Shown: positions 2,043 through 35,664 of the stretch, one piece after another
Layout of the letters: the number at the start of each line of letters is the position of its first letter
Numbering within the stretch: the stretch's first letter is position 1
DNA from: Aquiflexum balticum DSM 16537
Lineage (GTDB): Bacteria > Bacteroidota > Bacteroidia > Cytophagales > Cyclobacteriaceae
DNA length: 64,000 nucleotides
Assembly (NCBI RefSeq): GCF_900176595.1
Contig: NZ_LT838813.1
Location: 2,432,001 to 2,496,000 of the forward strand
Direction: 5' to 3'
Translations under genes and position numbers: made by a program
The notes under the pieces: model-generated
Told to the model about the DNA's origin: nothing
What the model saw: only the letters and a program-made list of their open reading frames with translations
The model's database searches: none

Positions 2043-2178
2043 AAGCGTAGTTTGTAACTACGCTTTTCTATCATGTTGAATTTGTAATTCAAATTGCCAA
2101 GAATTGCCTTTCGTTAGAGTTTTTGGTTGAATTGTCCAATTGCAAATTGGAATATATAAGAGGGTGTAATTGCAAATT
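2043..2178. repeat. Cluster of REP-like palindromes with TTGTA/TTGCA centres
   Basis: Several short palindromes stand close together: AAGCGTAG/CTACGCTT around TTTGTAA (2043-2065), TTGAATT/AATTCAA around TGT (2076-2092), CCAATT/AATTGG around GCA (2136-2150), and the half-palindrome GGGTGTAATTGCAAATT (2162-2178) that the IS110 element interrupts. The shared TTGTA or TTGCA centres resemble the palindromes beside the transposase gene at 35 kb. IS110 elements are known to insert into REP sequences. Confidence 0.6.
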
Positions 2179-2204
2179 CATATCTTTAAACTGAACCAAA
2201 AAAC

Positions 2205-2365
2205 AGAATAAAGGTGTAGCCTGATTTGCAAATTAAGTACAGCAATGCTGATACTGCGGTGTAGGGATCACACCTTTATTTTTTCCTCTTCGAATCTGAA
2301 TAGTACCCAGGCATGAAGAACTCCTTCAATGCTCCATAACGATGAGTTAAGAACAAGAGGGGATA
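2205..2365 (+). ncRNA. Predicted bridge RNA of the IS110 element
   Basis: Two consecutive bulged hairpins lie just before the recombinase start. Loop 1 is closed by AATAAAGGTGT/ACACCTTTATT (2207-2217 with 2270-2280) and capped by GTACAGC/GCTGaTAC. Its 5' side carries TTGCAAATT (2226-2234), identical to the left flank. Its 3' side carries GGTGTAGG (2258-2265), the reverse complement of the right junction CCTACACC (3576-3583). Loop 2 is closed by TTCCTCTT/AAGAGGGG (2283-2290 with 2355-2362) and capped by GCATGAAG/CTTCaATGC. Its 5' side carries ATAGTACC (2300-2307), identical to the element's right end (3570-3577). Its 3' side carries ATGAG (2342-2346), complementary to CT plus CAT of the left end. 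This matches target and donor loops of known bridge RNAs; expression is inferred. Confidence 0.75.
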
Positions 2366-2389
2366 CTGTTTTTATAAACCTTCTATCCT

Positions 2390-3535
2390 ATGTTAAAATA
2401 TTCTGTCGGACTGGATGTTTCTAGTAAATCTATCAATGGCTGCTTATCTTCCATAGATAAAGGTCAAAAAGTAACGGTGAAATCCACCCAGACTTTCCCA
2501 AATTCAAAAACCGGTTTTAAATCGATGGATTCTTGGATCAAAAAAAACCGAAAGGATGAAAACGTCCCTTTGGTAATCTGTATGGAAGCTACGGGGAATT
2601 ACCATGAAACCTGTGCTTTGTACCTGTTTGAAAAGGGCTATTCTGTATCTGTGGTTTTGCCTACCAAGGCGAAAAACTATCTTCGCTCACTTGGAAATAA
2701 ATCTAAAAACGACACGATCGATGCCCGGGGATTGGCTCAGATGGGAGCCGAGCAATGCCTGTCTCCCTGGTCGCCGTTTGGCAGGTTTTTCTATGAACTC
2801 CGTTCCCTGACCAGGCATCACCAGAGCCTGCAGGAACAAAAGACAGCTTCAAGAAATCAGCTCCATGCCATTAAAAACGGCATGTATTCTTCCAAGGCAG
2901 TTGAAAAGCAGTTGGAAAACATGATCAAACTGATCGATAAACAGCTAGAACAGCTTGAATCCACAATCAAAAACCACCTCCAATCCAAGGCAGAAGTATG
3001 GGGCAAGGTCGGGAATATCTGTTCGATCAAAGGAGTGGGTATCCTTACAGCGGCAATAGTTTTGGCCGAAACCAACGGCTTTGAACTTTTTGAAAACAAC
3101 AAACAGCTGGTAAGCTATTGCGGATATGATGTCGTCGAAAACCAATCCGGAAAAACCAACGGAAAAACCAGGATCTCAAAAAAAGGAAACTCAAGGATAA
3201 GGCGCGCGATGTTCATGCCGGCATTCCAGACAATAACCTATCAGGTCAAACCTTTCTACAACTTATTCAACCGCACTTTCGAAAAGCATGGCTTGAAAAT
3301 GAAAAGCTATGTGGCTGTCCAAAAGAAAATCCTAACTACCATCTATGCATTATGGAAAAACAATATGCCGTTTATTGAGGATTATCAACCCGAAATATCC
3401 AAAGAACAGGAGCTGGAGCTTCCCTCTCCGGTCAGCTTTGAAAAAGCTGAAAAAAATAGTGCCGATCAAGTCGGCACTACACAAGGTAAACATCCAAGTG
3501 AACGATCACTGTATGCTTCCTCTCCGGTATCGTAA
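2390..3535 (+). CDS. IS110-family DEDD recombinase (transposase)
   Basis: 381 residues. The N-terminal RuvC-like DEDD domain shows Asp9 (GLDVS), Glu66 (MEATGN), and Asp108 and Asp111 (DTIDARG), with the coiled helices that follow. The C-terminal Transposase_20 domain begins near residue 205 (ICSIKGVGILTAA) and includes RISKKGNSRIRR, where the family's catalytic serine is expected. In this family the protein works with a bridge RNA that pairs with target and donor DNA, exchanging strands at a dinucleotide core. The frame is intact. The last 30 residues look added: the DNA there has two perfect hairpins (3432-3450 and 3458-3478) and two near copies of CTTCCTCTCCGGT. Confidence 0.95.
   Translation: MLKYSVGLDVSSKSINGCLSSIDKGQKVTVKSTQTFPNSKTGFKSMDSWIKKNRKDENVPLVICMEATGNYHETCALYLFEKGYSVSVVLPTKAKNYLRSLGNKSKNDTIDARGLAQMGAEQCLSPWSPFGRFFYELRSLTRHHQSLQEQKTASRNQLHAIKNGMYSSKAVEKQLENMIKLIDKQLEQLESTIKNHLQSKAEVWGKVGNICSIKGVGILTAAIVLAETNGFELFENNKQLVSYCGYDVVENQSGKTNGKTRISKKGNSRIRRAMFMPAFQTITYQVKPFYNLFNRTFEKHGLKMKSYVAVQKKILTTIYALWKNNMPFIEDYQPEISKEQELELPSPVSFEKAEKNSADQVGTTQGKHPSERSLYASSPVS
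3432..3478 (+). repeat. Twin palindromes inside the 3' end of the recombinase gene
   Basis: TCAGCTTT-GAA-AAAGCTGA (3432-3450) and AGTGCCGA-TCAAG-TCGGCACT (3458-3478) are perfect hairpins within the coding sequence. They may protect or end the IS transcript, or be part of a small palindromic insertion. Confidence 0.5.
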
Positions 3536-3603
3536 AGGTAAAAAAAATTAAAATAATCTTGATTTTAAAGATAGTACCTACACCCAGTCCTAGCATTCAT
3601 TGT

Positions 3604-3664: not shown

Positions 3665-3717
3665 AAAAATCCCCCCTCCCCCAAAACTCTTTGAGTTTTG
3701 GGGGAGGGGGGATTTTT
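3665..3717 (-). terminator. Terminator of the tmRNA gene, 25-bp perfect stem
   Basis: Left arm 3665-3689 and right arm 3693-3717 are perfectly complementary around a TTT loop, with a C6-T-C5 run in the stem and T runs at both ends. It can act in both directions and lies directly after the tmRNA 3' end. Confidence 0.85.
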
Positions 3718-3720
3718 AAG

Positions 3721-4122
3721 TGGAGCTGGAGGGATTCGAACCCTCGTCCAGATAGGGAAACACCGTACCGTCTACATGCTTAGTCACCTGTTGGGTTTTC
3801 GATCAAGTACTGCTGGATGACACACCTATACTTGACTTAGCCACTTGTCTTAGCCCTGCTTAGTAGCCTCACAGGGAGCGGCTCTATCATTTCGACACCC
3901 CAGAATCAACCCGGAAAGAGCGGCGGGTTGCGGGATGTGGCCGGGGAGAATCTATCGAATCTCAACCCTTTAAGCATTATCTATTCCCCTGAGGGACAGA
4001 TTAGGCAGCCATGGCGTAAGAAGTTTCGCCAGTTATAGTCGTATGAATTATTCAAGGCCGTACATACTCCGGCCTGCATGCGAGCCCAGTCCTTACACCT
4101 ACTGTCAAAACCGGTCAGCCCC
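3721..4122 (-). ncRNA. ssrA: Transfer-messenger RNA (tmRNA)
   Basis: One-piece tmRNA of about 402 nt that rescues stalled ribosomes. The 5' end GGGGCTG (from 4122) pairs with the 3' CAGCTCC before the discriminator A at 3721; CCA is not encoded. The T-arm reads GGTTCGAATCCC. The tag frame at 4030-4001 reads GGC GAA ACT TCT TAC GCC ATG GCT GCC TAA, giving GETSYAMAA after the charged alanine. The YAMAA ending is typical of Cytophaga relatives rather than the usual YALAA. The terminator follows directly, so 3721 is well supported as the 3' end. Confidence 0.95.
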
Positions 4123-35115: not shown

Positions 35116-35664
35116 TTAATAAACCTCAACCTTAACCAATCCTTTTATCCCAGCATAATCCCTTGCCGAGCTGAATAAATAATGATGTTCTTCTTCAACA
35201 ATCATCGCCCTTACGGGATTTTGGTGGATATAATGTAGTTTTTGTTCAAAAAACTTTGGGGATTCAATACCGATTGCGTGTAAGCCATCAAACCAAAATT
35301 TGTAGGTATCAACTCTTTTGGAAATATTTCCCCGAAATTTAAACTGATTGAGTATCCATTTAGACCTTGAATCAATTGACTCGGTTTCAAGGCTCATAAG
35401 TATTTTTTTGGCAACAAAGCTTTTAAAATCTCTCATAATATCACTCAAAAATGCTGGCTCTTTGGCACGGCATAACAAATGAAGATGATTTGACATCAGG
35501 CACCAAGCATAAATTTCGAGACCTTTATTGTTGACACAATAATTCAAACTGTCAACAACATCAAGTTTATACTCTTTTCTAGTAAAAATATCTATCCAAT
35601 CCATGACGGTGAATGTCAAAAATTGAATACCGTTTTGGTCGCTTATTTGAAATGGTTTCAGCAT
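35116..35664 (-). CDS. REP-associated tyrosine transposase (RAYT, IS200/IS605-like Y1)
   Basis: 182 residues. The HUH motif is NHLHLL (His60 and His62) and the catalytic Tyr is probably Tyr145 in LHYIHQNPVRAMIV, a standard RAYT arrangement. The N-terminus ISDQNGIQFLTFTVMDWIDIF fits the same family. The enzyme cuts single-stranded DNA beside REP hairpins. It is single-copy in most genomes and thought to spread its flanking palindromes. Here the gene lies exactly between REP-like units, which supports an intact RAYT/REP system. The C-terminus ends 5 bases from the left unit. Confidence 0.93.
   Translation of the reverse strand: MLKPFQISDQNGIQFLTFTVMDWIDIFTRKEYKLDVVDSLNYCVNNKGLEIYAWCLMSNHLHLLCRAKEPAFLSDIMRDFKSFVAKKILMSLETESIDSRSKWILNQFKFRGNISKRVDTYKFWFDGLHAIGIESPKFFEQKLHYIHQNPVRAMIVEEEHHYLFSSARDYAGIKGLVKVEVY

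What the first reader, a model, noticed from the sequence alone, without database searches (positions are those of the whole stretch)
2177..3578. Complete bridge RNA with all four guides readable in an IS110 element
Seen: between the element's left end and the recombinase gene are two bulged hairpins. The 5' side of loop 1 has TTGCAAATT (2226-2234), equal to the left flank (2170-2178). Its 3' side has GGTGTAGG (2258-2265), the reverse complement of CCTACACC at the right junction (3576-3583). The 5' side of loop 2 has ATAGTACC (2300-2307), equal to the right end (3570-3577). Its 3' side has ATGAG (2342-2346), complementary to CT plus CAT, the core plus left end. Each guide is on the side where IS621-type target and donor loops have it. 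Known: IS110 recombinases are directed by such RNAs. Inference: this Bacteroidota element has a functional, readable programme.
Basis: partly seen in the sequence, partly recalled or inferred. Interest (0 to 1): 0.9.

Follow-up and report, generated by a model that had tools for sequence, protein, structure and literature searches.

The report
IS110 bridge RNA aimed at REPs
This is a recently active jumping gene that carries its own two-part guide RNA; the guide can be read directly from the DNA, most of its five copies in this genome sit where the guide says they should, and its preferred sites look like the hairpin repeats that accompany another kind of mobile gene.

Summary
Window 2177-3579 is a complete IS110-group element: a bridge RNA (about 2198-2373) upstream of a recombinase with the expected catalytic residues. 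All four guides are present; the two right-end coordinates were one base low. The genome holds five copies, identical over 1402 bp. Their left flanks match the left guide 9/9 in three, 8/9 and 5/9 in the others; right flanks 5/5 in four, 4/5 in one. A same-genus genome without the element has one site uninterrupted, fixing a 2-bp core. In relatives the loop-1 guides differ and, with exceptions, follow their own flanks (0 of 20,000 permutations). Both 'handshake' bases covary (15/18 and 15/15).

Additions: (1) the target is a dispersed hairpin that brackets REP-associated tyrosine transposase (RAYT) genes in two relatives, so probably a REP; sister elements in Algoriphagus use another REP-like hairpin. 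(2) All 3 exact targets in this genome are occupied, against 0 of 4 one-mismatch sites. (3) Four of five copies have left core TT but right core CT: target core kept left, donor core right.

New member of a known kind. Transcription and activity are untested.

The parts
2177..3579 (+). Whole IS110-group element, both core dinucleotides included (1401 bp if one core is counted)
   Evidence: Five copies identical over the 1402 bp compared; junctions fixed by the uninterrupted gene in a same-genus genome
2162..2178 (+). Left part of the interrupted target hairpin: arm GGGTGTAATT 2162-2171, loop GCA 2172-2174, start of the other arm AATT 2175-2178 (left core TT = 2177-2178)
   Evidence: Sequence; 10-bp perfect inverted repeat when the flanks are joined, reached by 0 of 300 shuffles; intact copies in G001
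3580..3585 (+). Right part of the target hairpin, ACACCC (right target)
2179..2184 (+). Right donor (element left end) CATATC
   Evidence: Same in all five copies; CATAT, CGTAT or CCTAT in the relatives scored
2198..2373 (+). Bridge RNA gene as delimited by the covariance model (true transcript ends unknown)
   Evidence: Model R1, 187.5 bits (this sequence is one of the six the model was built from)
2199..2206 (+). 5' strand of a predicted stem closing around both loops (AAAAACAG), pairs with 2366-2373 (CTGTTTTT)
   Evidence: RNAalifold consensus of six close RNAs; nearly invariant, so hardly any covariation support
2207..2217 (+). Target-binding loop, basal stem 5' strand, pairs with 2270-2280
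2226..2234 (+). Left target guide TTGCAAA-TT (core TT included)
   Evidence: 9/9 with left flanks of L001, L004, L005; 8/9 L002; 5/9 L003
2258..2264 (+). Right target guide GGTGT-AG, antisense to CT-ACACC
   Evidence: ACACC in 4 of 5 right flanks, ACGCC in 1
2265..2265 (+). Handshake base of loop 1 (G), pairs with donor position 7 (C3577)
   Evidence: 15 of 15 Watson-Crick over the elements with a right end, permutation p 7e-4
2282..2291 (+). Donor-binding loop, basal stem 5' strand, pairs within 2351-2363
2300..2307 (+). Left donor guide ATAGTACC
   Evidence: Equals the right end 3571-3578; in relatives it changes with the end sequence (ACAGTACC, ACAGAAT)
2336..2346 (+). Right donor guide, AT (2336-2337) ... 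ATGAG (2342-2346), discontiguous as in IS621
   Evidence: ATGAG antisense to core CT + CAT; ACGAG where the end is CGTAT. The AT part is by analogy with PMC11208158 (passages seen)
2347..2347 (+). Handshake base of loop 2 (T), pairs with target position 7 (A2176)
   Evidence: 15 of 18 Watson-Crick, 0 of 200,000 permutations
2390..3535 (+). IS110 RNA-guided recombinase, 381 aa; D9, E66, D108, D111, S253 correspond to IS621 D11, E60, D102, D105, S241
   Evidence: Pfam PF01548 + PF02371; NCBIfam NF033542 203.5 bits, cut-off 140; alignment to IS621 8wt6 (numbered assuming two extra residues in that chain; D9 lies outside the aligned stretch)
3571..3579 (+). Left donor ATAGTAC (element right end, 3571-3577) and right core CT (3578-3579)
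2043..2065 (+). Neighbouring hairpin of the same dispersed repeat, AAGCGTAGTTTGTAACTACGCTT
   Evidence: Sequence; analogous GTGTAG..CTACAC hairpin beside the target hairpin in L113, L201, L202
2136..2150 (+). Neighbouring hairpin of the same repeat, CCAATTGCAAATTGG
   Evidence: Sequence; same pair of hairpins in G001 copies L095 and L096

Best explanation
The feature is an intact IS110-group insertion sequence with a readable bridge RNA. Inferred working, by homology with IS621: the RNA is transcribed from the left end and bound by the recombinase; loop 1 pairs with the genomic target (left guide with the bottom strand of TTGCAAA+core, right guide with the top strand of core+ACACC) and loop 2 with the circular junction ATAGTAC-CT-CATATC; top strands are cut after the 2-bp core and exchanged. 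Shown here: the four complementarities; that over relatives loop-1 guides follow the flanks and loop-2 guides the ends; that the two handshake bases covary with their partners; that one copy interrupts a gene exactly as a 2-bp-core insertion would; that the three exact targets in the genome are occupied. Also shown: the target is a dispersed hairpin that in two other genera brackets a RAYT gene. Inferred from that: the programme is aimed at the REP repeats of another mobile system.
For: IS110 domains and catalytic residues. Five identical copies with mostly guide-matching flanks. Orthologue in G001 uninterrupted (558-aa frame..RYELTNYAQFLKS..) with one TT core: GATATGAATTAACTAATTATGCG against GATATGAATTGGCAAATTACGCC joined. 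Flank tracking over 18 RNAs (17 left, 15 right flanks usable): 0 of 20,000 permutations. Handshake bases 15/18 and 15/15. The covariance model finds the RNA at every own copy, at two G239 copies not used in training (170 bits) and at distant relatives L013 (E 3.9e-10) and L014 (2.6e-7); none in G001 (150 of 888 first-look candidates scored). Exact 14-mer target: 3 of 3 occupied; 0 of 4 one-mismatch sites; 1 of 103 two-mismatch sites. RAYT genes bracketed by the exact target hairpin: L201 and L202 (NF047646, 93.2 and 88.2 bits, cut-off 80).
Against: No transcript or activity data. Own copy L003 matches the left guide in only 5 of 9 positions (a one-base shift in that repeat variant). Among relatives the right flanks of L040 and L026 do not fit their right guides, the left flanks of L011, L016 and L063 are no better than swapped ones, and G239 copy L155 fits 4/9. 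Base-pair covariation of the fold itself is thin: 3 of 60 pairs have changes on both sides, because the six close RNAs are alike. Of 25 distant homologue loci given to the model (L006 and L007 not counted), 2 matched with E below 1e-6, 11 at 17-27 bits, and 12 not at all or at 9 bits.
Confidence: 0.93

Rival explanations
1. The flank matches are mere consequences of the repeat: a protein-recognised hairpin (REP) is the target and loop 1 happens to resemble it, or derives from captured target DNA, without guiding.
For: The target of the close clade is a hairpin (6 of the 8 joined sites of that clade tested, p <= 0.003), and hairpin-binding transposases exist (recalled).
Against: Distant relatives with non-hairpin targets still show guide-flank agreement (L020, L028). 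Own copy L002 lies in a gene, its site shows no significant hairpin (p 0.117), yet it matches the guides 8/9 and 4/5. The handshake bases covary too.
Confidence: 0.05
2. Dead element: it has the anatomy but no longer moves.
For: No expression data; only five copies.
Against: All five copies are identical over 1402 bp with the recombinase frame open in each; catalytic residues kept; no recombinase match in same-genus genome G001.
Confidence: 0.07
3. Some of the five copies spread by homologous recombination or segmental duplication of repeat arrays, not by separate guided insertions.
For: L001 and L004 lie in similar repeat copies; L003 and L004 are about 2 kb apart in opposite orientation; the two sides of L005 are not contiguous in G001.
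Against: L002 lies in a gene, L003 in another repeat variant, L005 in a further context; flanks outside the repeat differ. At least three insertions look independent.
Confidence: 0.08

Closest known systems
IS621 / ISCro4 (IS110 group) and their bridge RNAs
   Same: DEDD + serine recombinase, RNA in the left end, two loops with left/right target and donor guides, CT donor core, handshake bases, discontiguous right donor guide, REP targets (PMC11208160 and PMC11208158: passages seen, and section 12 of the former; solved structures). These are IS621 features; for ISCro4 only the protein match was seen
   Different: Bacteroidota by its relatives (Algoriphagus, Cyclobacterium); other guides; right target guide with 5 bases beyond the core; target core mostly TT; predicted stem closing around both loops; probably the REP of a different RAYT
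IS1111 group / seekRNA elements (ISPa11, ISKpn4, ISEc11)
   Same: RNA-guided DEDD recombinases, some of which hit folded repeats such as REPs and attC (PMC11187229, passages seen)
   Different: They carry subterminal inverted repeats, usually 11-13 bp, and the RNA at the right end; here the RNA is at the left end and only an ATA/TAT symmetry flanks the core
REP-targeting insertion sequences described in 2006 (ISPsy8, ISPa11, ISPpu9, ISPpu10, ISRm19, ISRm22)
   Same: Insertion into REP repeats (PMC1525189, abstract seen)
   Different: Here the guide that specifies the REP can be read and is seen to differ between sister elements with different REP-like targets

Membership tests
IS110 group of the IS110 family | DEDD (PF01548) plus Transposase_20 (PF02371) recombinase | tested here: met
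   E 1.5e-21 and 9.2e-23; NF033542 above cut-off
IS110 group of the IS110 family | Catalytic D, E, D, D and S | tested here: met
   E66, D108, D111, S253 aligned to IS621; D9 by position only, outside the aligned stretch
IS110 group of the IS110 family | Bridge RNA in the left non-coding end with target and donor loops | tested here: met
   (sequence and prediction; no transcript)
IS110 group of the IS110 family | Guides covary with target and donor over homologues | tested here: met
IS110 group of the IS110 family | Insertion at a 2-bp core without other target duplication | tested here: met
   Uninterrupted orthologue in G001
IS110 group of the IS110 family | Circular intermediate | not testable with these tools
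   Needs PCR or reads
IS110 group of the IS110 family | RNA transcribed and bound by the recombinase; re-programmable | not testable with these tools
   Needs RNA and protein work
IS1111 group | RNA in the right end and subterminal inverted repeats of 7-17 bp | tested here: not met
   Between the stop (3535) and the right core (3578) lie 42 bp; the RNA lies at the left end
REP/RAYT repeat (the target) | Dispersed palindrome that flanks a REP-associated tyrosine transposase gene | tested here: met
   Exact target hairpins on both sides of RAYT genes in L201 and L202; by eye, no other PF01797 match in G001, G107, G206, G120 or G223 is bracketed by exact targets
REP/RAYT repeat (the target) | Mobilised by that RAYT | not testable with these tools
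   Inference only

The most novel reading that the evidence does not exclude
In this Cyclobacteriaceae clade the target guides are kept in step with the REP hairpins of RAYT genes: an RNA-guided transposon follows another mobile system's repeats, and sister elements have been re-programmed from one REP type (TTGCAAAYT-ACACC) to another (GAGACT-TGCGC). The element reads only the loop and 3' arm of the hairpin, and in this host it has filled every exact site.
Probability: 0.45. Interest if true: 0.6.

Novelty: new member of a known kind. Interest (0 to 1): 0.45.

Why it matters
Bridge RNAs are candidate tools for programmable DNA rearrangement, and natural variants with fully readable guides, a known empty site and several identical copies are useful test cases beyond IS621. 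The natural core mismatch (target TT, donor CT) records which core survives at each junction. The REP link suggests a question that can be tested in sequence alone: do bridge RNA guides evolve to follow the commonest hairpin repeats of each host?

Tried and rejected
Rejected: IS1111 membership (RNA at the wrong end). Rejected as a general rule: 'the target must be a hairpin'. Of 18 joined sites tested (single-base shuffles), hairpins with p <= 0.003 were found at L001, L004, L005, L012, L011 and L042 only; L002 (p 0.117) and L003 (p 0.373) of the own genome and all 10 distant-relative sites (lowest p 0.083) were not significant. Partly supported only: that Algoriphagus guides follow host-abundant hairpins. 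With a fixed 3-base loop CAAGTC..GACTTG was absent from G157 and G305; with loops of 3-5 bases it is found 19 times in G305, 21 in G314, 25 and 16 in two Algoriphagus in which no close element was found (G226, G259), but only 3 times in G157, 2 in G223, and 9 and 7 times in G000 and G001 (reversed controls 0-2).

Rows dropped: 18 RNAs were used; L013 has too little left flank (contig start); L014, L017, L044 have no right end. Not scored at all: own copies L002-L005 (same RNA), duplicates L041, L043, L061, L062, L064, same-element copies L065 and L066, the two G239 copies, L006, L007, and the homologues L018, L021, L023, L025, L027, L029-L039 and L045-L060, most of which lack a recognisable end or RNA; a few of them (for example L021, L030, L033) have one recognisable end and could have been used. 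The search windows overlap the donor loop, so the L040 right score stems from the donor guide and really counts against the model. The first automatic reading of the loop-2 handshake base took a wrong GAG in several rows and gave 9 of 18 (permutation p 0.033); reading it from the invariant GAG column of alignment A1 gave 15 of 18. The rows are related (six close sequences share one state), so these p-values overstate independence. The comparison of RAYT positions (44 matches) with exact targets was made by eye; G305 was not. Rfam found no bridge RNA family at gathering thresholds (one tmRNA, three tRNAs). In one search the model also gave weak opposite-strand hits at own copies (15-19 bits). 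No structure prediction was run.

Full report
What is there. Between a short-chain-dehydrogenase-like gene (1075-1836; NCBIfam SDR models match, those shown below their cut-offs) and the tmRNA gene (3718-4122, minus strand) lies an IS110-group element. Its recombinase (2390-3535) carries both Pfam domains and is above NCBIfam's cut-off for 'IS110 family RNA-guided transposase' (203.5 bits against 140). Against IS621 in the PDB it aligns over residues 32-329 (E 1.9e-29), with E66, D108, D111 and S253 on the IS621 catalytic residues named in PMC11208158; D9 fits the first aspartate by position.

Guides. The element runs from the left core 2177-2178 to the right core 3578-3579. Loop 1 carries TTGCAAA-TT (left target guide) and GGTGT-AG followed by G; loop 2 carries ATAGTACC and ATGAG followed by T. 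Order and strand are those of IS621, in which the core is part of all four pairings (PMC11208160, passages seen).

Copies. The genome has five copies of the recombinase at 100% identity and two distant homologues at 22%. The five elements are identical over 1402 bp. Left flanks, 9 bases including the core: TTGCAAATT (L001, L004, L005), TGGCAAATT (L002), TTTGCAACT (L003). Right flanks: ACACC in four, ACGCC in L002. The right core is CT in 5 of 5; the left core is TT in 4 of 5 and CT in L003.

Empty sites. A same-genus genome, G001, has no recombinase match and no bridge RNA match among the 150 of 888 candidates scored. It has the orthologue of the gene interrupted by L002: the joined site aligns over 399 bases at 77% identity, without a gap at the junction, in an open frame of 558 aa; at the core it reads TT. 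Thus the insertion adds the element and one extra core dinucleotide. For L005 a similar repeat with TT is in G001 (L103), though the two sides of L005 are not contiguous there. For L001 and L004 the TT is what completes the 10-bp inverted repeat GGGTGTAATT-GCA-AATTACACCC and what G001 copies of the hairpin show. The target core was therefore most likely TT in four cases; it is kept at the left junction and the donor's CT at the right. That is the top-strand outcome if the top strand is cut after the core, as in IS621 (PMC11208158, passages seen; the same paper says that TT cores also supported recombination). Four cases, perhaps not all independent, are few; this step is inference.

Relatives. 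A search of 295 genomes of the family matched 100 at E <= 0.001, most only distantly. Close elements (82-87%) are in Algoriphagus boritolerans (L011 = L041), A. locisalis (L042, and L044 cut by a contig end), Algoriphagus sp. A40 (L040) and Cyclobacterium sp. 1_MG-2023 (L012 = L043), and in pieces at contig ends of G239. Their donor guides and ends agree with those of the window; their loop-1 guides differ except in L012 and G239, which are close to the window's. Examples: L012 guide TTGCAAACT, flank TTGCAAACT; L042 right guide antisense to CCTTGCGC, right end CCTTGCGC; L011 CCTTGAAC likewise. Distant elements (33-48%) do the same (L013 CCTACGAC, L015 CCTGCCGC, L020 CCTGAGGA, L028 CCTAAAATG), and where their ends differ (CGTAT for CATAT, ACAGAAT for ACAGTAC) the donor guides differ with them. 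Swapping flanks between elements never reached the observed agreement in 20,000 permutations. Not every row agrees; the exceptions are listed under evidence against.

Handshake bases. In IS621 the base after each right guide can pair with position 7 of the other DNA after strand exchange (PMC11208158, passages seen). In alignment A1 the base after the loop-2 guide is the complement of target position 7 in 15 of 18 elements (U-A, A-T and C-G all occur; permutation mean 6.2, 0 of 200,000 reach 15), and the base after the loop-1 guide is the complement of donor position 7 in 15 of 15 (G-C and A-T; p 7e-4). Relatedness makes these figures optimistic, and a first, faulty reading gave 9 of 18.

Fold. 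Six close RNAs share a consensus with a target loop, a donor loop and a stem that closes around both. Of 60 pairs only 3 show changes on both sides, so the fold is plausible rather than proven by covariation. The derived covariance model finds the RNA at all own copies and at two G239 copies outside the training set (170 bits), at L013 and L014 with good E-values, and at further distant relatives only weakly or not at all. The closing stem may be a local variant; IS621 has a 5' stem-loop (PMC11208158, passages).

What the programme aims at. The exact target TTGCAAAYTACACC occurs in 59 of 295 family genomes, up to 20 times in one (G178), while the reversed control gives at most one hit in any genome listed. 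It is the loop and 3' arm of a hairpin that belongs to a dispersed, in places tandem, repeat with further hairpins (L113: 162-bp period). In G206 (L201) and G107 (L202) such hairpins lie directly on both sides of a REP-associated tyrosine transposase gene (NF047646, 93.2 and 88.2 bits against a cut-off of 80). The hairpin is thus probably that RAYT's REP. The link is to one RAYT subfamily: of 44 PF01797 matches in seven genomes I found only these two bracketed by the exact sequence. G001 has a gene of the same subfamily (L203, 93.6 bits) with diverged hairpins around it. Such genes also lie next to IS110 copies: a RAYT remnant (84% identical over residues 109-170, with stop codons) lies about 50 bp from the right end of own copy L003; one with a stop codon lies beside a G239 copy (C32:409-915); and in A. 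locisalis a RAYT of another sequence type (101.5 bits) lies about 570 bp from the left end of L044, among CAAGTC..GACTTG hairpins. IS621 and several other elements were already known to use REPs (PMC11208160, passages; PMC1525189, abstract), so this is a further case, not a new principle.

Occupancy. In the own genome no vacant exact target is left and three are occupied (L001, L004, L005). Of sites with one mismatch 0 of 4 are occupied; of sites with two, 1 of 103 (L002; 102 vacant, many of them probably chance: 106 places in all with one or two mismatches against 68 for the reversed control). L003 sits at a site with three mismatches. G001, without the element, has 9 vacant exact sites. The guides thus predict the preferred sites, with tolerance for imperfect ones.

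Literature. Seven searches of the held library were made, the last two naming Algoriphagus with Cyclobacteriaceae or Cyclobacterium; in the listings (25 of 38 and 20 of 22 papers shown) I saw no paper on bridge RNAs of Cyclobacteriaceae or on this repeat. 'Bacteroid' has no occurrence in the main texts of PMC11208160 and PMC11187229, and the repeat survey PMC3733652 does not name Algoriphagus or Cyclobacterium. Supplements were not seen and most subscription journals are not held.

Verdict. Observation confirmed, interpretation supported, mechanism known: a new, unusually legible member of the IS110 group.

Noticed in passing
window 35116-35664 (-): A RAYT gene (182 aa; NF047646 86.4 bits, cut-off 80) lies in the same window; it is 42% identical to the G001 gene of the subfamily whose REP is the IS110 target.
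   Followed up: partly
L113 (G107:C11), 1493-2526: Tandem array of the multi-hairpin repeat, 5.2 copies at a 162-bp period and an overlapping 1.9 copies at 199 bp; exact targets spaced 113 bp in G120:C31 and 125 bp in G107:C32.
   Followed up: partly
L040, 3183-3210: The right flank of this Algoriphagus element is CT-CATATTC, which resembles the element's own left end, not its right target guide; perhaps recombination at a donor-like site.
   Followed up: no
G000:C1:5158.8-5163.7 kb (L003, L004): Two identical copies about 2 kb apart in opposite orientation beside a RAYT remnant, a natural setting for inversion.
   Followed up: no
L006, L007: A second, distant IS110-type element (22% identity) is present twice in the genome, with an identical stretch upstream of both genes.
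   Followed up: no
window 3670-3712: Strong inverted repeat (20 pairs counted) that reads as a terminator on both strands, between the element and the tmRNA gene.
   Followed up: no
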